This document shows, one piece after another, positions 19,795-47,440 of a stretch of 64,000 bases of DNA. A model generated the notes under the pieces. The model searched no databases, had not been told where the DNA came from, and was given only the letters and a program-made list of their open reading frames with translations. The DNA comes from Dokdonella sp. (lineage in GTDB: Bacteria > Pseudomonadota > Gammaproteobacteria > Xanthomonadales > Rhodanobacteraceae). The stretch covers positions 124,001 to 188,000 of the forward strand of contig NZ_JAHCAQ010000003.1 of assembly GCF_019634845.1 (NCBI RefSeq), given 5' to 3'. The position numbers and the translations under genes were made by a program. The first letter of the stretch is position 1. Each line of letters starts with the position of its first letter.

Positions 19795-20013
19795 GCGACG
19801 CGCGCCGCGCGCGCCAACGCCACCGCACCGACGCGACGCGGCCCCGCCCCTTCGCAGCACCCGAACCGATCCGCAGTGCCATGCCCCGCCGCGCGGCAGC
19901 GCGGTGGCATCGGCATGCCCGGTCGATCGCGCCGTCCACGGGCGCGCCCGTCAACGCTGCACGCTTCGCGTACCATCGGCGATCTGCCGCTCCGAGCCGG
20001 CACCGACCAAGCC

Positions 20014-20103
20014 ATGAACGAAGCCGCCGCAACGCCCCCACTGTCTCGCACCAGCGACCAGCACACCCCGCTGCTGCGCCAGTATTTGCCTAGGGTTGTG
20101 TAG
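20014..20103 (+). pseudogene. mutS: Abandoned 5' end of mutS
   Basis: An ATG frame of 29 codons ends at a stop just past an insertion point. Its residues SDQHTPLLRQYL match the conserved MutS opening (HTPMMQQYL in many MutS proteins). The functional mutS 1.5 kb downstream has the equivalent HTGAMRQYF. The shared nucleotides TGCGCCAGTA[T/C]TT (20075-20087 here, 21581-21593 there) are in the same reading frame in both copies. The simplest explanation is that this was the original mutS start and that an insertion severed it; codons after 20087 (PRVV, stop) come from the insert. It may still be transcribed from the old mutS promoter. Confidence 0.72.
20075..20087 (+). repeat. Left imperfect 13-bp repeat at the mutS insertion
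   Basis: TGCGCCAGTATTT matches 12 of 13 bases of the copy at 21581-21593 (TGCGCCAGTACTT). The two copies mark the crossover points in mutS coding sequence and are 1506 bp apart, as expected for attL/attR of a site-specific island. Confidence 0.6.
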
Positions 20104-20164
20104 CCCTGTTTTGTCCGGCATTTTTTGCGTGTTTATGATCGCAACCGAGCTGGAAACGGTCTCA

Positions 20165-20182
20165 TGGACACCCTATGGACAC
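20165..20182 (+). repeat. 18-bp motif, left copy
   Basis: TGGACACCCTATGGACAC is itself two TGGACAC units 11 bp apart (one helical turn). It matches the right copy at 21457-21474 at 16 of 18 positions. Location 78 bp inside the left junction suggests an arm-type recombinase or regulator site. Confidence 0.6.
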
Positions 20183-20287
20183 ATCCAAACCTGCTCCAGA
20201 GCCGTCGGGAGCCCGCTCGCTGAGCGCGGCATATGCCCATGGAAATTATGGCTTTGACTCCATATGCCCTTTGAGCCATCATCGGCC

Positions 20288-20680
20288 ATGACCTGGATCG
20301 TCATGCTTCACCCCGACTTCGACGCCGAGTTCGCAGACTTGGCAGAAGACCTGCAAGACGAATTGCTGGCCCATGCGAAGCTGCTGGCAGAGTTCGGCCC
20401 GAATCTCGGACGCCCCACGGTGGACACGCTCAAGGCGTCGAAGCACGCGAACATGAAGGATCTGCGCTTCGAATGGGCGAGCGAAGTCTGGCGCGTGGCC
20501 TTTGCCTTCGATCCGAAACGTCAGGCGATCCTGCTGACTGCCGGCGACAAAGCCGGCGCCGACCAACGCCGCTTCTACAAACGATTGATCGCCATGGCCG
20601 ATGCGCGCTACGACGATCACCTCGCCACGCTCCGCAACACCCGAACCCCTGAGGCTTCCCATGGCAAGAAAGCTCGATGA
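20288..20680 (+). CDS. higB: HigB/Gp49-like toxin
   Basis: A 130-residue protein of the phage-derived Gp49-like/HigB family (RelE superfamily), probably a ribosome-dependent mRNA endonuclease. Family blocks visible are FDAEFADL near the start, the GRPTVDTLKASKHANMKDLR core, the basic/aromatic WRVAFAFDPKRQAILLTAGDK segment and FYKRLIAMADARYDDHL. I chose the ATG at 20288, which gives the family's usual MxW opening; 20264 is an in-frame alternative. It overlaps the antitoxin gene by 20 nt, in the toxin-first order typical of higBA. It is the first gene inside the mutS insertion. Confidence 0.85.
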   Translation: MTWIVMLHPDFDAEFADLAEDLQDELLAHAKLLAEFGPNLGRPTVDTLKASKHANMKDLRFEWASEVWRVAFAFDPKRQAILLTAGDKAGADQRRFYKRLIAMADARYDDHLATLRNTRTPEASHGKKAR

Positions 20681-20987
20681 CGTGATCGCCGCCCTTCCGA
20701 CAAACCGGCGGAAGCGAATCGAAAAACGAGCGCAGGAATTGGCGACGCTGAAGGATTTGCGCCTGGCCGTCGAGAAGACGCAGGTCGAGTTGGCCGCCGA
20801 ACTCGGTGTCGGTCAGGACACGATCTCGCGACTGGAGAAGCGCAGCGACATGTTGCTCTCGACGCTGCGGCACTATGTCGAAAGCATGGGAGGAACACTC
20901 GAACTCGTTGCACAATTCCCTAATCGACCACCTGTGACTATCGAGCACTTGGGAATGGAGAAAACGAATCGCCGCAAAGCGGGCTGA
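20661..20987 (+). CDS. higA: HigA-like XRE antitoxin
   Basis: A 108-residue DNA-binding protein that should neutralise the upstream toxin and repress the operon. MARKLDDVIAALP and RRKRIEKRAQELATLKDLR precede a helix-turn-helix at about residues 40-60 (KTQVELAAELGVGQDTISRLEKRSD), typical of the XRE antitoxins paired with Gp49-like toxins. GAGG 6 nt before the ATG supports the start. Overlap with the toxin suggests translational coupling. Confidence 0.87.
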   Translation: MARKLDDVIAALPTNRRKRIEKRAQELATLKDLRLAVEKTQVELAAELGVGQDTISRLEKRSDMLLSTLRHYVESMGGTLELVAQFPNRPPVTIEHLGMEKTNRRKAG

Positions 20988-21534
20988 ACGTACACGATGG
21001 ATATGAACGGGTGAAAATACCCAGCCTCACGCACCAAGGCGAACGCCTGACCAACCCGGTGGTTGCTGTCTGCGCTGGCGCAGAAGGCGGCCGACTGGAG
21101 ATCCGCCGAACGCCATATCGCCGCCGTCATTCCGCTGCGCTTGGGCACGAAAGCGCTCGGGCGCAGCACCGCGCATTGCCGTTTCGCTTGGTGGTGGACG
21201 CAAGAACATCATCCGTCCCATGAGCAGCCCGTTAACGACCACGGCCAGCGGCATCGGTGGGCACACGCTGGCCCGTTTTCCGATTAGCGGCAACTGAGCC
21301 CTGCTATGGCGTGCGAAAGCGTGTCGTGCACGCGCTCGCGCGTTGAGACCCAAGAGCGATTCGATCCAAATTGGCTAGGCTGTAGATCGACACGCCCGCC
21401 GCTTCGGTCGGGAATGTGTCCACGGATTTCCTCATGTGCGTAGCTTGGGAGACCTGTGGACACAATATGGACACGCACCCCGTGCGAATTCGCCTCCCTC
21501 GATTTTTTGCACTTCACAGAAAGGCAAATGATTC
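20988..21534. other. 547-bp stretch without a convincing gene, right half of the mutS insertion
   Basis: Short frames here (for example 21011-21223 on plus, 21027-21353 on minus) have no recognisable family, no good ribosome site and no consistent codon pattern. The stretch holds the right 18-bp motif, an inverted GTGTCCA unit at 21416-21422 and the AT-richer lead-in to the new mutS start. It may contain decayed cargo or the recombination arm region. Confidence 0.5.
21457..21474 (+). repeat. 18-bp motif, right copy
   Basis: TGGACACAATATGGACAC matches the left copy at 16 of 18 positions, in the same orientation, 1292 bp away. It lies about 106 bp inside the right junction. A single inverted half-unit (GTGTCCA) lies at 21416-21422. 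Confidence 0.6.
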
Positions 21535-24153
21535 TTGAACTATCAAGAGCTTAAGGAAGACAAACGCCACACAGGGGCCATGCGCCAGTACTTCGCCGCC
21601 AAGGCGGAGCATCCGGACACGCTGGTGTTCTTCCGCATGGGCGATTTCTACGAGCTGTTCTACGAGGACGCGCGCAAGGCGGCGCGGCTGCTCGACATCA
21701 CGCTGACGCAGCGCGGTGCGTCGGCGGGCGCGCCGATTCCGATGGCCGGCGTGCCCTACCACGCGGCCGAGTCCTACCTCGCCAAGCTGGTGCGCCTGGG
21801 CGAATCGGTGGCGATCTGCGAACAGATCGGCGATCCGGCGCTGGCCAAGGGCCTGGTCGAACGCAAGGTGGTGCGCATCGTCACGCCCGGCACGGTCACC
21901 GATGCCGCATTGCTCGAAGAGCGGCGCGACAACCTGCTGCTCGCGATCGCCGCCGGCAGCGTCGGTTATGGCCTGGCCTGGGTCGATCTGTCGGCCGGCC
22001 GCTTCCTGCTCAGCGAGGTCGCCAGTGCCGAAGCACTCAATGCGGAACTGGCCAGACTGACGCCAGCCGAGACACTGGTCGGCGAGGACGTGGCCTGGCC
22101 GCGTTTCGTGACCGGGCTGCCGGGACTGCGCAAGCGTGGCCCCTGGCATTTCGACACCGCCACGGCGCGGCGCGAATTGGCGCGCTTCTTCGGCACGCGC
22201 GACCTGTCGGGTTTCGGCGTCGACGACCTGCCGCTGGCGCTGGCTGCGGCGGGCGCCTTGCTGGCCTACCTGGGCGAAACCCAGAAGGCCGCCCTGCCAC
22301 ACCTGAGCGGCCTTGCGGTCGAGAGCGCGAGCGAAACGATCGCGCTCGACGCCGCCACGCGGCGCAACCTGGAGCTCGACAGCCATGCCAGCGGCAACAG
22401 CGATCTCACGCTGTTCGGCGTGCTCGATTCGAGCGTGACGCCGATGGGCGCGCGCCTGCTGCGGCGCTGGCTCAATCGTCCGCTGCGCGACCATGAGCTG
22501 CTGCGGCAGCGCCAGCAGGCCGTGCAACACCTGCTCGACGGTGCCCGCGCAGGCGAATTGCGCGACGTGCTGCGCGGCGTCGGCGACCTCGAGCGCATCC
22601 TCGCCCGCGTTGCGCTGCGTTCGGCGCGTCCGCGCGACCTGTCGACGCTGCGCGACAGCCTCGCGCTCGCACCGACGCTCGCCGGCGTCCTCAGCGCCGG
22701 CGGCGATGCGCTACTGGCGACGGCGCCCGATACCCTGCTCGCCCGGATCCTGGACCGCATCGGCGATCATGCGCCCGTGGTCGAGCAGCTGACTGCCGCG
22801 ATCGTCGACACGCCGCCCGCGCTCGCGCGCGACGGCGGCGTGATCCGCGGGGGCTTCGACGCCGAGCTCGACGAGCTGCGTCAGCTGTCGACGCACGCCG
22901 ACCAGTTCCTCGTCGAACTCGAGGCGCGCGAGAAGGCGGCCACCGGCATCGCCACGCTCAAGGTCGGCTACAACAGCGTGCACGGCTACTACATCGAGAT
23001 CAGCAAGGCGCAGGCCGACAAGGCGCCCGCGCATTACACGCGGCGGCAGACGCTCAAGGGCGCCGAACGCTACATCACCGAGGAACTCAAGGCGTTCGAG
23101 GACAAGGTGCTGTCGGCGCGCGAACGCTCGCTCATGCGCGAACGCCTGCTCTACGAGGCCGTGCTCGACTTCCTCGCCGCCCGGCTCGATGCGCTCAAGC
23201 TCGCCGCGGCGGCGCTGGCCGAGCTCGATGTGCTGGCCGCGCTGGCCGAGCGCGCCGAGGCGCTGCGCTGGAACTGCCCGCAGCTTGTCGACGCCGCCGG
23301 CATCCACATCGTGCGCGGGCGTCATCCCGTGGTCGAACGCGTGCGCGAGGAGCCGTTCGAGCCCAACGATCTGGACCTGCGCGAAGGCCGTCGCATGCTC
23401 GTCATCACCGGCCCCAACATGGGCGGCAAGTCGACCTACATGCGCCAGGCCGCGCTCATCGTGCTGCTGGCCCACATCGGCAGTTTCGTGCCTGCCGACG
23501 CCGCCACCATCGGTCCGATCGACCGCATCTTCACCCGCATCGGCGCCGGCGACGACCTCGCGCGTGGCCAGTCGACCTTCATGGTCGAAATGAGCGAGAC
23601 CGCCGGCATCCTGCACAACGCGACGGCGGCGAGCCTCGTGCTGATGGACGAAGTCGGCCGTGGCACCAGCACCTACGACGGGCTGGCACTCGCGCGCGCC
23701 TGCGCGGTTGCGCTGGCCACGCGCAATCGCGCCTGGACGCTGTTCGCGACACATTACTTCGAACTGACCGAGCTCGCCGCCGAGCACGAGGGCATCGCCA
23801 ACGTGCATCTGGACGCGGTCGAGTTCCACGACCAGGAACGCGGCGAGCAGCTCGTGTTCATGCACGCGGTCAAGGAAGGCCCGGCCAACCGCAGCTTCGG
23901 CTTGCAGGTGGCGGCGCTGGCCGGTCTGCCACGCGCAGTCGTCGACGATGCGCGCCAGACCCTGCGCGCACTCGAGGCCGCGCACTTGCCTGGCGCACCT
24001 GCCGCGGCCACGTCCGCGCCCCATCCCCAACTGGGCTTGTTCGCGCCGCCACTGCCTTCGGCGGCCGAGGAGGCACTGCGCGCGCTCGACCCCGATGCGC
24101 TCACGCCACGCGAGGCGCTCGCGGCGATCTACCGCCTCAAGCACCTGGTCTGA
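21535..24153 (+). CDS. mutS: DNA mismatch repair protein MutS (with replaced N-terminus)
   Basis: Recognises mispairs and starts methyl-directed repair with MutL. The 872-residue protein keeps the mismatch-reading motif Phe38-x-Glu40 (RMGDFYELF), the connector, lever and clamp domains, and the ATPase: Walker [10 protein letters not shown] at about 626-634, the [10 protein letters not shown] block, Walker [17 protein letters not shown] and the [11 protein letters not shown] signature; a C-terminal dimerisation tail follows. The start is unusual: TTG at 21535 gives [20 protein letters not shown], supplied by the inserted element, with AAGG about 10 nt upstream. Alternatives are the ATG at 21580, which would remove 15 residues. 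Only the first 15-20 residues come from foreign sequence, so activity is probably kept, but expression now depends on the insert. Confidence 0.95.
21581..21593 (+). repeat. Right imperfect 13-bp repeat at the mutS insertion
   Basis: TGCGCCAGTACTT, 12 of 13 identical to 20075-20087 and in the same mutS reading frame (Arg-Gln-Tyr codons CGC CAG TAC). Past this point the MutS sequence is the normal family sequence. Confidence 0.6.
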
Positions 24154-43988: not shown

Positions 43989-44073
<85 letters not shown>

Positions 44074-44751: not shown

Positions 44752-47013
44752 ATGTGCTGGCAAACGAGGTTGTCGTTGTTCGGTCGTATTGCGCTCGCGC
44801 TGTTGGTACTGGGCGCAAGTTTCCGGGTGCCCGATGCTCGGGCGGGTGCTGGTGTCGCTGTGGCCGCCGGCGACGAGCACACCTGCGCCATCGTGTCTCG
44901 CGGCGCGGTCAAGTGCTGGGGCCGGAACGATTACGGCCAGCTCGGCGACAGCACGACGACGGATAGCCCGACGCCGGTATACGTGAGCAGGATCAACGGC
45001 GCGACAGCTGTGGCAGCAGGCGGGAATCACACCTGTGTCATCGTGTCCACCGGTGCGGTCAAGTGCTGGGGCCGGAACGATTACGGCCAGCTCGGCAACG
45101 GCACGACGACGGATAGCCCGACGCCGGTATACGTGAGCGGGATCAACGGCGCGACAGCTGTGGCAGCAGGCGGGAGTCACACCTGTGTCATCGTGTCCAC
45201 CGGTGCGGTCAAGTGCTGGGGCCGGAACGATTACGGCCAGCTCGGCAACGGCACGACGACGGATAGCCAGACGCCGGTGGACGTAAGCGGACTCAGCGGC
45301 GCAACGGCTTTGGCAGCGGGGACGGCCCACACCTGCGCCATGGTGCCCGGCGGTGCGGTGAAATGCTGGGGTTATGGTGGCGCGCTCGGCAACGGCACGG
45401 GAGCGGACAGCGCGACGCCGGTTGGCGTGAGCGCGATCAGCGGCGCGACAGCATTGGCAGTCGGGGATGAACACGCCTGCGTCATTATGTCGAGCGGCGC
45501 GGTGAAGTGCTGGGGCTCCAACGGTTTCGGCGAGCTCGGCGACCGCACGGGAGCGACGGGGGCGAACGGCGCGACGCCGGTGGACGTGAGCGGAATTGAC
45601 GGGGCGACAGCTGTGGCAGCAGGCAGGCATCACTCCTGCGCCATCGTGTCCGGCGGCGCGGTGAAATGCTGGGGCAGCAACTATTACGGCGAGCTCGGCA
45701 TTGGCACATTCGGCTACAGGGCCACACTAGTGGCTGCCATTGGAATCAGCGGTGCGACGGCGTTGGCAGCGGGCAAGTATCAAACCTGCGCCACCGTGTC
45801 CCGCGGCGCAGTGAAGTGCTGGGGCGCCAACGACAGGGGGCAGCTCGGCATTGGCGCATTTGGCGACAGTGCCACGCCGGTGGCTGCCATTGACATCAGC
45901 GGTGCGACGGCGTTGGCAGCAGGCTGGTATCACACCTGTACCATCGTGTCCGGCGGCGCGGTGGAATGCTGGGGACGGAATGATTCCGGCCAGCTCGGCA
46001 ACGGCACGACGACGGCTAGCCCGGCACCGGTGACCGTGAGCGGAATCAACGACGCGACGGCATTGGCAGCAGGCGGGACTCACACCTGCGCCATCGTGTC
46101 TATGGGTGCGGTCAAGTGTTGGGGCAACAACGGTTCCGGTCAGCTCGGCAACGGCACGACGACGGATAGCTCGACGCCGGTGGACGTAAGCGGACTCAGC
46201 GGCGCAACGGCTTTGGCAGCGGGGACAGCTCACACCTGCGCGATCGTGTCCGGCAACGCGGTGAAATGCTGGGGCTTTCGTAACGCACTCGGCAACGGCA
46301 CGGAGACGGACAGCTCGACGCCGGTGGTCGTGAGCGGGCTCAGCGACGCAACGGCACTGGCAGCCGGGGATGGTCACACCTGCGTCAGCGTGTCCACCGG
46401 CGCAGTGAAGTGTTGGGGACACAACCAGTACGAGCAGCCCATCCCCGGTCAGATGCCATTCAACCGGACTCCCGCGAACGTGAACGGAATCAGTGGCGCT
46501 ACGACATTGGCAGTGAGGGAGCATTACACCTGCGCCATCGTGTCCGGCGGGACGGTGAAGTGCTGGGGCGACAGCGTCTACTATGGCCAGCTCGGGGACG
46601 GCACGGTGGCGGAGATCGCGACGCCGGTGGACGTAAGTGGTATCAGCGGCGCGACGGCATTGGCGGTAGGTGAGTTGCACGCTTGCGCCGTCGTGTCCGA
46701 CGGCGCGGTCAAGTGCTGGGGCTACAACGCTCGCGGTCAGCTCGGCGACGGGACGACGACGAACAGGCTGACGCCGGTGGACGTGATCGGAATCAGTGGC
46801 GCGGCGGCTGTAGCGGCTGCGGATGGCCACACCTGCACCATTCTGTCCGGCGGTGCGGTGGAGTGCTGGGGCGACCGTGGGGCTGGCCAGCTTGGCGACG
46901 GGTTCTGCTCGTTCTGTCTGACGCCGCAGAACGTCGTCGGACTGCTTGGTGATTCGGGCTTCCCGCCACGCCCGCATCGACCGCCGCTGCCGCCCGTTGG
47001 CCAGCGCTGGTAG
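44752..47013 (+). CDS. Secreted RCC1-repeat beta-propeller protein, 14 repeats
   Basis: A 753-residue exported protein. Signal peptide at about 1-32 (MCWQTRLSLFGRIALALLVLGAS...ARAGAG). It is built from 14 RCC1-type repeats of about 50 residues, each with the pattern HTCAIVSxGAVKCWGxNxxGQLGNGTTTDSxTPVxV. Each repeat holds two conserved Cys (HTC and KCWG), suggesting disulfides in an extracytoplasmic protein. Fourteen repeats could make two seven-bladed propellers. Repeats 2 and 3 are nearly identical in DNA, with a 150-bp period, and repeats 3-4 resemble 9-10, so the array is being homogenised. GGGAG 6 nt before the ATG at 44752 decides the start. It ends in a Pro-rich tail. Function unknown. 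It follows the integrase remnant and may be its cargo. Confidence 0.85.
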   Translation: MCWQTRLSLFGRIALALLVLGASFRVPDARAGAGVAVAAGDEHTCAIVSRGAVKCWGRNDYGQLGDSTTTDSPTPVYVSRINGATAVAAGGNHTCVIVSTGAVKCWGRNDYGQLGNGTTTDSPTPVYVSGINGATAVAAGGSHTCVIVSTGAVKCWGRNDYGQLGNGTTTDSQTPVDVSGLSGATALAAGTAHTCAMVPGGAVKCWGYGGALGNGTGADSATPVGVSAISGATALAVGDEHACVIMSSGAVKCWGSNGFGELGDRTGATGANGATPVDVSGIDGATAVAAGRHHSCAIVSGGAVKCWGSNYYGELGIGTFGYRATLVAAIGISGATALAAGKYQTCATVSRGAVKCWGANDRGQLGIGAFGDSATPVAAIDISGATALAAGWYHTCTIVSGGAVECWGRNDSGQLGNGTTTASPAPVTVSGINDATALAAGGTHTCAIVSMGAVKCWGNNGSGQLGNGTTTDSSTPVDVSGLSGATALAAGTAHTCAIVSGNAVKCWGFRNALGNGTETDSSTPVVVSGLSDATALAAGDGHTCVSVSTGAVKCWGHNQYEQPIPGQMPFNRTPANVNGISGATTLAVREHYTCAIVSGGTVKCWGDSVYYGQLGDGTVAEIATPVDVSGISGATALAVGELHACAVVSDGAVKCWGYNARGQLGDGTTTNRLTPVDVIGISGAAAVAAADGHTCTILSGGAVECWGDRGAGQLGDGFCSFCLTPQNVVGLLGDSGFPPRPHRPPLPPVGQRW

Positions 47014-47254
47014 CGCGGCGGGCGGATGCGTGTTGCCGCGCAGCGGCGATCGGCGCAGCGTCGCAACCGCCGTTCGCACGGCAGGCTCACACGCCACCTG
47101 CGCCTCAGCCCCGATCACCGCCACCGTGGATGACGAGCACATCGGGCGATCGGCCTCGATCCCCTGCGCGCGAGGGAAGGATTCAGGCCGGCGGGTTTCT
47201 TGTTGCCGCTGGGCACGGCCACGACGCTGCGCTCGGCTATACTGCGCCGCTTGA
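47014..47254. other. Intergenic region between the RCC1 gene and the glycine riboswitch
   Basis: No gene or terminator with a T-run is seen. A possible -10 box for gcvP lies at 47238-47243. I searched by eye for a repeat of the tRNA-Leu 3' end that would mark the far end of an island and found none. Confidence 0.3.
47238..47243 (+). promoter_or_regulatory. Possible -10 box of the gcvP leader
   Basis: TATACT lies about 17 bp before the first glycine aptamer, where a transcript start would be expected. No good -35 is present at 17-bp spacing, so the assignment is weak. Confidence 0.3.
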
Positions 47255-47257
47255 TGC

Positions 47258-47440
47258 ACGCGACGGGAGAAGCGGCGATGAGCCGCTGCCGAAGGCGCAA
47301 CGCCCGTAATCGCTCAGGCCAGCAAACCTTCGCGTGCGCACACTCTGGAGAGATCGGCCCGCAGTCGAGCGCGGCAGCCGGCGCCGAAGGGGCATGAGGC
47401 GGCAACGCCTCCAAACTCTCAGGCAAAAGGACAGAGGGGC
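47258..47440 (+). promoter_or_regulatory. Tandem glycine riboswitch upstream of gcvP
   Basis: Two glycine aptamers are recognisable. The first (about 47261-47337) has GACGGGAGA, CCGAAGGCGCAA and CGCTCAGGCC. The second (about 47341-47440) has CTGGAGAGA, CCGAAGGGGCA and CTCTCAGGCAAAAGGACAG. These are the conserved core blocks of the gcvT-motif riboswitch. Glycine binding normally switches on the cleavage system, and the gene 176 nt downstream is gcvP. No intrinsic terminator with a T-run follows the second aptamer, so control at translation is more likely, but the expression platform is not clear. Confidence 0.9.

What the first reader, a model, noticed from the sequence alone, without database searches (positions are those of the whole stretch)
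19995..21620. Insertion has severed and replaced the 5' end of mutS
Seen: an ATG frame at 20014 encodes SDQHTPLLRQYL, and 1.5 kb later the functional MutS frame encodes [10 protein letters not shown] followed by normal MutS sequence. Both align with the conserved HTPxxxQY(L/F) opening of MutS. The nucleotide overlap TGCGCCAGTA[T/C]TT occurs in frame at both points. Inferred: a site-specific element entered codons 21-25 of the old mutS and supplied a new start. Such islands are described at the mutS 5' end in streptococci, where excision and integration switch mismatch repair on and off. A similar switch here would make a reversible mutator possible.
Basis: partly seen in the sequence, partly recalled or inferred. 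Interest (0 to 1): 0.82.

Follow-up and report, generated by a model that had tools for sequence, protein, structure and literature searches.

The report
Stripped-down mobile island inside mutS
A 1.5-kb piece of mobile DNA carrying a toxin-antitoxin gene pair has cut off the original start of the DNA-repair gene mutS and supplied a new one; such mutS insertions are a known phenomenon, but this one has no mobility enzyme of its own and looks locked in place rather than like a mutation-rate switch.

Summary
Codons 1-25 of the original mutS (ATG 20014, ...HTPLLRQYL) are severed, and 1.5 kb later mutS restarts from a foreign start (TTG 21535, [19 protein letters not shown]) at a shared core (20075-20087, 21581-21593). 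The insert has paired integrase-arm-like motifs at both ends and a conserved toxin-antitoxin pair, but no integrase. Relatives show an integrative element: a same-genus genome has a 22-kb island here while a sister has the site empty; eight of 233 family genomes carry a recombinase, or pieces of one, beside mutS; one holds two islands in tandem. A reversible mutator is not supported: no such integrase was found in this 90%-complete genome, and the predicted excision product is an in-frame mutS. New here: a 1.5-kb integrase-less derivative (published range 4 kb to >150 kb), and a second class of element start, found in three genera, with no integrase detected, possibly a satellite lineage. Verdict: real, a new variant of a known kind, moderate interest.

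The parts
20014..20103 (+). Severed original mutS start (29 codons plus stop; up to about codon 24 host, the rest read-through into the element)
   Evidence: HTPL(L/M)RQY as in relatives
20075..20087 (+). Left core repeat TGCGCCAGTATTT (attL)
   Evidence: similarity to relatives ends at 20084-20088 in 18 of 20 blastn hits
20165..20182 (+). Left paired arm-like motif TGGACACCCTATGGACAC
20288..20680 (+). Toxin gene, 130 aa, Gp49-like (DUF891); called RelE/ParE family in plasmid records; the name HigB-like is recalled
   Evidence: PF05973 E 4.8e-18 on the longer frame 20264-20677; plasmid annotations; dN 0.04 / dS 0.36-0.47 against G011 and G280
20661..20987 (+). Antitoxin gene, 108 aa, XRE-type helix-turn-helix, overlapping the toxin
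   Evidence: HTH_3 E 1.9e-6 on the longer frame 20601-20984; dN 0.02-0.04 / dS 0.78-0.84 over the first 94 codons
20988..21410 (.). Filler without long similarity in 233 family genomes; probable site of internal deletion or cargo exchange (inferred)
21415..21464 (.). Imperfect inverted repeat TGTGTCCACGGATTTCC / GGAGACCTGTGGACACA overlapping the right arm
   Evidence: similar sequence in G011 right end
21457..21474 (+). Right paired arm-like motif TGGACACAATATGGACAC
   Evidence: identical 18-mer in G011 and G284 island A
21535..21580 (+). Element-supplied new mutS start ([17 protein letters not shown])
   Evidence: same type in G011, G390, G284
21581..21593 (+). Right core repeat TGCGCCAGTACTT (attR)
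21535..24153 (+). mutS with replaced 5' end, 872 aa

Best explanation
The insert is an integrase-less, 1.5-kb derivative of a family of integrative islands that recombine into the conserved HTPxMRQY codons at the 5' end of mutS. Shown: the host start is orphaned at the left; the element's right end brings its own start codon and first codons, so mutS stays open; both ends keep the core repeat and the paired TGGACAC motifs; the body is down to a conserved toxin-antitoxin pair and 0.4 kb of filler. Inferred: a larger island entered by a tyrosine recombinase acting on core plus TGGACAC arms, then lost its integrase and cargo; the toxin-antitoxin pair selects against loss; without an integrase the insertion is locked unless a related island supplies the enzyme in trans. 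MutS is expected to be made from the new start; if excision happened, mutS would be rejoined in frame, so no on/off mutator switch is predicted. A change of MutS level through the new promoter and the TTG start remains possible and untested.
For: Filled/empty pair in the same genus: in G005 an intact mutS follows sequence whose start-proximal 83 bases (82%) and next 366 bases (92%) match G004 at 96.2-96.6 kb, while G005's mutS matches G004 at 72-74 kb (92%), so 22 kb lie between the halves in G004. G011 (same genus) has the same left end with the same gene pair (88% over 866 nt) and the same right end (79% over 167 nt), on two contigs, with other cargo beside the right end. The paired motif is exact in 6 of 233 family genomes, 8 sites; all 8 lie close to a mutS core or a severed mutS start. 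Recombinase P0001 matches 11 of 233 family genomes; in 8 of the 11 it lies directly beside mutS, divergent, and so does the one hit (G046) among 369 class genomes at E<=1e-10. Catalytic R...HxxR...H...Y residues are invariant in six relatives. No match in the window genome and no remnant in the window. The gene pair is under purifying selection; in 233 family genomes matches over more than 800 nt were reported for G000, G011 and G280 only, each at a severed mutS start. In-frame rejoining. Junctions.
Against: The cognate integrase is assigned from shared arm motifs and site, not from an experiment. The genome is a 90%-complete assembly in 27 contigs, so an integrase elsewhere could be missed. 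No relative with the window's own upstream gene order (infA-mutS) was seen among the loci held, so the window's exact empty site is not observed. The G004/G005 pair is not perfect: G005 has about 1.06 kb more upstream, part of which (142 nt, 75%) matches G004 elsewhere. Pfam's PF00589 is not reported for P0001 even at E<=1; PHROG integrase matches are 0.0042 for P0001 and 3.4e-9 and 5e-18 for two relatives. Part of P0001 (99 and 39 aa) also matches G304 on another contig, and three weak hits (G288, G041, G503) are not known to be at mutS.
Confidence: 0.85

Rival explanations
1. Trans-mobilised satellite: NYQELK-type ('class II') elements are a lineage of integrase-less islands that use the integrase of mutS islands in trans, carry exchangeable cargo, and keep arms and core for that purpose.
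For: Class II right ends in 4 of 233 family genomes, of three genera, with different cargo (toxin-antitoxin pair; Zorya; sulfur genes; transporters and regulators). No match of the P0001 family or of PF00589 at that place in any of the 4. G284 holds a class II island (10 kb) in tandem with an integrase-bearing island (62 kb). The right arm 18-mer is identical in window, G011 and G284.
Against: No movement observed; G390 lacks the exact arm motif and its orphaned start was not found; the interior of the G011 island is not assembled; independent decay of several islands would look alike. Other recombinases were looked for only by Pfam scans of 8 frames (plus one) of G284 island A and 10 frames of the G390 island.
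Confidence: 0.3
2. Reversible mutator switch: excision and reintegration turn mismatch repair on and off.
For: Described for an element in mutS of V. splendidus 12B01 (excision leaves a 2-bp deletion; reintegration not shown there; PMC5296598) and for SpyCI in mutL (abstracts).
Against: No integrase here; the rejoined frame is intact. In E. coli 536, P. putida F1 and B. multivorans CF2 excision left mutS in frame (PMC5296598).
Confidence: 0.04
3. Assembly or binning artefact, or a chance similarity of two short peptides.
For: Draft genome in 27 contigs.
Against: Both ends recur in another genome, G011, and the class II start in G390 and G284; the locus lies inside a 253-kb contig.
Confidence: 0.02
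4. MutS starts at ATG 21580 (MRQYF...) and the NYQELK codons are untranslated.
For: An ATG exists at 21580 within the frame.
Against: The codons before it tend to keep their amino acids across genera: codons 2-20 dN 0.02-0.23 against dS 0.76-1.88 in three comparisons (only 19 codons, five of them the shared core, so rough).
Confidence: 0.1

Closest known systems
Mobile elements in mutS of Vibrio splendidus 12B01 and other Beta-/Gammaproteobacteria (Chu et al. 2017, PMC5296598)
   Same: Same conserved motif in mutS, orphaned host start upstream, element supplies new start and upstream region, flanking imperfect direct repeats
   Different: Published elements vary from 4 kb to >150 kb and were found through their integrase; the window element is 1.5 kb without one, carries a toxin-antitoxin pair, and its new start does not restore the HTP motif (HTGA). 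12B01 excision leaves a 2-bp deletion; here the predicted joint is in frame
SpyCI islands of Streptococcus pyogenes (PMC3430984, PMC4689407; abstracts only)
   Same: Island at the 5' end of a mismatch-repair gene
   Different: In mutL, blocks transcription, excises with growth phase; phage-like
dusA-specific islands (PMC4482086)
   Same: Integrase-directed insertion in the 5' end of a conserved gene, with replacement of the first codons by the island
   Different: Different gene; carry the integrase
GInts (PMC5385486)
   Same: 5'-end insertion, 10-11-nt imperfect repeats, exchangeable cargo, short 3' end
   Different: Need a three-integrase ginABCD operon; the described ones enter an ABC-transporter gene; the word mutS does not occur in that main text
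Type II toxin-antitoxin pairs of the RelE/ParE-XRE type on plasmids
   Same: Toxin followed by XRE antitoxin; Hydrogenophaga and Limnohabitans plasmid copies 71% and 68% identical over 48% of the insert query
   Different: Here tied to the left end of mutS elements

Membership tests
mutS-integrating mobile elements (Chu et al. 2017) | Insertion within the conserved HTPMMQQ-type codons of mutS | tested here: met
   Core at codons 21-25; junctions
mutS-integrating mobile elements (Chu et al. 2017) | Orphaned host start upstream | tested here: met
   20014-20103; filled/empty pair in the genus
mutS-integrating mobile elements (Chu et al. 2017) | Element supplies a new start for mutS | tested here: met
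   TTG 21535; same type in G011, G390, G284. Translation from it not tested
mutS-integrating mobile elements (Chu et al. 2017) | Integrase gene beside mutS | tested here: not met
   None seen in insert or window nor in the assembled genome; filed as an integrase-less derivative, not a full member
mutS-integrating mobile elements (Chu et al. 2017) | Integrase homologous to that of V. splendidus 12B01 | not tested
   The 12B01 sequence was not at hand; the relatives' recombinase is P0001
mutS-integrating mobile elements (Chu et al. 2017) | Excision as a circle | not testable with these tools
   Needs PCR or reads
SpyCI | Integration at 5' end of mutL | tested here: not met
   The gene is mutS: five MutS domains
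GInt | ginABCD operon with three integrases | tested here: not met
   No PF00589 match at the site in G000; no recombinase seen in the insert
Type II toxin-antitoxin (RelE/ParE type with XRE antitoxin) | Toxin family and adjacent HTH antitoxin | tested here: met
   PF05973 and HTH_3; no curated NCBIfam toxin-antitoxin model reached its cut-off; toxicity not tested
Tyrosine recombinase (relatives' P0001) | R...HxxR...H...Y catalytic set | tested here: met
   Invariant R365, H529, R532, H554 and Y571 in 6 aligned relatives; roles inferred from the recalled motif; Pfam PF00589 not reported

The most novel reading that the evidence does not exclude
mutS is a shared docking site with two partners: integrase-bearing islands that restore the HTP(L/F)MRQY motif, and a satellite lineage of integrase-less elements, down to a 1.5-kb addiction cassette, that borrow the integrase in trans and re-write the first codons of MutS with a conserved [N/D]YQ-L--D-RH[T/S][G/A][A/S] peptide, so that tandem docking (as in G284) lets a cell carry several interchangeable MutS starts.
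Probability: 0.25. Interest if true: 0.62.

Novelty: new variant of a known kind. Interest (0 to 1): 0.42.

Why it matters
It shows how a repair gene can be lastingly re-started by a stripped-down mobile element and gives a concrete locus, with filled, empty and tandem relatives, to ask whether islands in mutS alter MutS levels or only use a conserved site. It also corrects the streptococcal precedent and tempers the idea that each insertion at mutS is a mutation-rate switch.

Tried and rejected
Reversible mutator switch: rejected as the main reading (no integrase; in-frame joint). Artefact: rejected. SpyCI and GInt membership: rejected (see membership rows). Integrase remnant in the insert: tblastn of seven relatives' recombinase frames gave nothing convincing; the 2.5e-5 hit of G464 at 21638-21570 is a reverse-strand read of the mutS start shared by that over-long frame. 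A promoter for the new mutS start: the sigma-70 scan found two sites in 19950-21700, both in the left part (20111, 20254), none before 21535 in the right end, so the promoter is unknown. HxG-type mutS start in the genome-contig collection: 17 stretches, of which 2 are mutS (L069, the contig of G390; L075, the contig of G011), 15 chance. IMG/VR: 2 stretches, none mutS; class II start pattern 5 stretches, none mutS. Forty IMG/VR stretches with the arm motif were listed but not studied. P0001 in plasmid and phage records: no match. G004's more distant recombinase: 18 phage records, 25-32% identity, mostly Acinetobacter and Moraxella phages. NCBIfam gave nothing for the recombinases; the best solved-structure hits of the profile are a ribosomal protein (E 0.031, chance) and a CP4-like integrase (E 0.047). 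No structure was predicted: the recombinase comes from loci outside the tool's stated set, so it was not submitted.

Mistakes mended on the way: one search read nine minus-strand loci in the wrong sense (redone); one search used a wrong infA frame (redone) and its left-flank query ended at 20085, so its hit ends say nothing (replaced).
Full report
Observation. The sequence at 20014 reads MNEAAATPPLSRTSDQHTPLLRQYLPRVV* and the mutS frame reopens at TTG 21535 as [20 protein letters not shown].... The mutS frame is 872 codons with five Pfam MutS domains. The 10-nt identical core TGCGCCAGTA starts at 20075 and at 21581; with the next three bases it is TGCGCCAGTA[T/C]TT, in frame at both ends. In 28 of 29 relatives' loci read, mutS begins with a HTP(L/F/M)M(R/K)Q(Y/F) motif; the exception is G011. 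With a left query that runs 115 nt past the core, 20 of 29 relatives' loci gave a blastn hit and 18 of the 20 end at 20084-20088; on the right, similarity begins at 21579-21586 in 26 of 29.

The insert. Between the cores lie: a paired motif TGGACACCCTATGGACAC at 20165; a 130-aa toxin gene of the Gp49-like family (PF05973, E 4.8e-18) and an overlapping 108-aa helix-turn-helix antitoxin gene; about 420 bases without long similarity in 233 family genomes; an inverted repeat and a second paired motif TGGACACAATATGGACAC at 21457. The paired motif has an expectation of 0.01 in shuffles of the window. The insert has 59% G+C against 71% on both sides. No recombinase or remnant was detected in it.

Relatives with the same ends. 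In G011 (same genus) the left end, gene pair included, is 88% identical over 866 nt, and the right end 79% over 167 nt; beside the right end lie ZorA, ZorB and a cut-off ZorC of a Zorya defence system. The middle of that island is not assembled. In 233 family genomes a long match to the gene pair was reported for G000, G011 and G280 only, each at a severed mutS start; 15 other genomes have matches of at most 61 nt (the search scored two candidates per genome). The pair is under purifying selection: toxin dN 0.02-0.04, dS 0.36-0.47; antitoxin, first 94 codons, dN 0.02-0.04, dS 0.71-0.84. The pair is 86-87% identical between the window and each of G011 and G280, whereas the first part of mutS is 79% and 76% identical; this fits horizontal exchange, but the antitoxin dS is no lower than that of mutS (0.71-0.80), so the point is weak.

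The new start is a type. The NYQELK-type start occurs in 4 of 233 family genomes (G000, G011, G390, G284; reversed control 0), of three genera, each time at a mutS core. In G284 it belongs to the inner end of a tandem and is followed by another island, not by mutS. A scan of the genome-contig collection (one genome for each of 84,980 species by its description) for an H-x-G variant found 17 stretches; 2 are mutS, namely the contigs of G390 (a Lysobacterales MAG) and G011; 15 are chance. The window genome may be left out of that collection, and G284's HSAS variant does not fit that pattern. In window and G011 the first start codon of the frame is TTG; in G390 an in-frame ATG lies six codons earlier.

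Islands with an integrase. The exact paired motif occurs in 6 of 233 family genomes at 8 sites, all close to mutS cores or severed mutS starts; the reversed control pattern hit once in the same genomes. Following these led to a recombinase of about 630 aa (P0001 from G116) directly beside mutS and divergent from it. P0001 matches 11 of 233 family genomes. In 8 of the 11 it adjoins mutS: G116, G284, G304, G386, G464, G505, G440 and G004. In G440 only fragments remain, in G505 only residues 15-220 align, and G004's is 35-40% identical in three pieces. G304 has a further partial match on another contig. The other 3 genomes (G288, G041, G503) have weak partial matches; G041's lies on another contig than its mutS, the other two were not checked. 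In 369 genomes of the class the profile matched 1 at E<=1e-10, G046, again beside mutS. Pfam's PF00589 is not reported for P0001; the catalytic R, HxxR, H and Y are invariant in six relatives, PHROG integrase families match P0001 at 0.0042 and two relatives at 3.4e-9 and 5e-18, and an Arm-DNA-binding domain is hinted at in G304's (E 0.0017, below its cut-off).

Anatomy. G116: island of 56.8 kb; G004: 22.2 kb; G284: island A of 10.0 kb directly followed by island B of 61.9 kb. Island B carries a TrwC relaxase and a TrwB/TraD-type coupling protein, so at least this one is probably mobilisable or conjugative (inferred). Island A has a NYQELK-type right end and no recombinase by PF00589, P0001 or Pfam scans of 8 of its frames and one more. 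In the G390 island 10 frames were scanned: sulfur-metabolism, transport and regulatory families, no recombinase; its orphaned start was not found and it lacks the exact paired motif.

Filled and empty site. G005's locus (4,344 bases, intact mutS) aligns to G004 as follows: mutS at G004 72.0-74.0 kb (92%), the 83 bases around the start at 96.2 kb (82%), and 366 bases further upstream at 96.3-96.6 kb (92%); about 1.06 kb of G005 between the last two is absent there, and 142 nt of it match G004 at 106.3 kb (75%). Joining flanks at the core in scripts gives an open frame across the joint for G004, G116 and island B of G284 and for the window, where it is 877 codons without a stop; joining the flanks of island A alone leads into island B, not into mutS.

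Mechanism. Shown: site-specific insertion into mutS with replacement of the start; retention of core and arms at both ends of the window element; no integrase detected. Inferred: a tyrosine recombinase of the P0001 type made the insertion, the island then shrank to the gene pair and its ends, and the toxin-antitoxin pair hinders loss. The arms suggest it could still be moved in trans; the tandem in G284 shows that two elements can share the site. A switch of mismatch repair is not expected, because both states leave mutS open; a change of MutS amount is possible and untested, and no sigma-70 consensus was found in the right end before the new start.

Known work. Chu et al. 2017 (PMC5296598; parts 1-3 of 6 read, plus a term search) describe elements of 4 kb to >150 kb in the HTPMMQQ codons of mutS in hundreds of Beta- and Gammaproteobacteria, with new start and promoter; excision in 12B01 leaves a 2-bp deletion and hypermutation, while in E. 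coli 536, P. putida F1 and B. multivorans CF2 mutS stays in frame. They also report a 7-kb element in Enterovibrio norvegicus with few genes and no excision detected, possibly degraded, the nearest published parallel to a worn-down element. The terms toxin, tandem, integrase-less, Xanthomon, Lysobacter and Stenotrophomonas do not occur in its main text. SpyCI sits in mutL (abstracts). dusA islands also replace a 5' end (PMC4482086; passages and two sections). GInts need three integrases (PMC5385486; part 1 of 6 and passages). A prophage site between mutS and cinA in Pseudomonas is another thing (PMC2647930; passages). In the listings I saw no title or abstract start that describes an integrase-less mini-element in mutS; this says nothing about papers outside that library or about unread texts.

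Verdict. Real, correctly seen, mostly correctly read at the sequence level; the functional inference of a switch is not supported. Membership in the published kind is incomplete because the integrase is missing, so it is filed as a new variant: an integrase-less form below the published size range, with a distinct start shared across three genera.

Noticed in passing
L145-L149 (G284:C9:789288-861105): Two mutS islands in tandem (10 kb without integrase, 62 kb with integrase, TrwC relaxase and coupling protein), so three alternative mutS starts lie in one genome.
   Followed up: partly
L084:4107-8031 (G011:C290): Zorya genes ZorA1, ZorB1 and a cut-off ZorC1 (PADLOC names) as cargo beside the mutS right end.
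   Followed up: yes
L062:6382-14663 (G390:C31): Island with DoxD/DoxA, TauE, Sulf_transp, Lactamase_B and AhpC-type genes between cinA (name from recall) and mutS, with a NYQELK-type start but no orphaned mutS start found.
   Followed up: partly
L154 (G304:C4:156956-160917): Two consecutive large frames (753 and 567 aa) on the minus strand with partial integrase matches (E 2.8e-6 and 1.8e-5), 7-11 kb from mutS; reminiscent of a GInt-like operon.
   Followed up: no
P0001 (L152:17166-19067): A recombinase family of about 630 aa for which Pfam's phage integrase model is not reported; the long matches found all lie beside mutS.
   Followed up: partly
window 47254-47438: Tandem glycine riboswitch aptamers (Rfam RF00504 twice); a tRNA lies at 43989-44070.
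   Followed up: no
window 44878-46872: About 13 copies of a 150-bp repeat (73% matches); it looks like an RCC1-type protein (name recalled, not tested).
   Followed up: no
L105-L144 (IMG/VR contigs): Forty viral stretches hold the exact motif TGGACACNNTATGGACAC; two hold it twice. Not examined for integrases.
   Followed up: no
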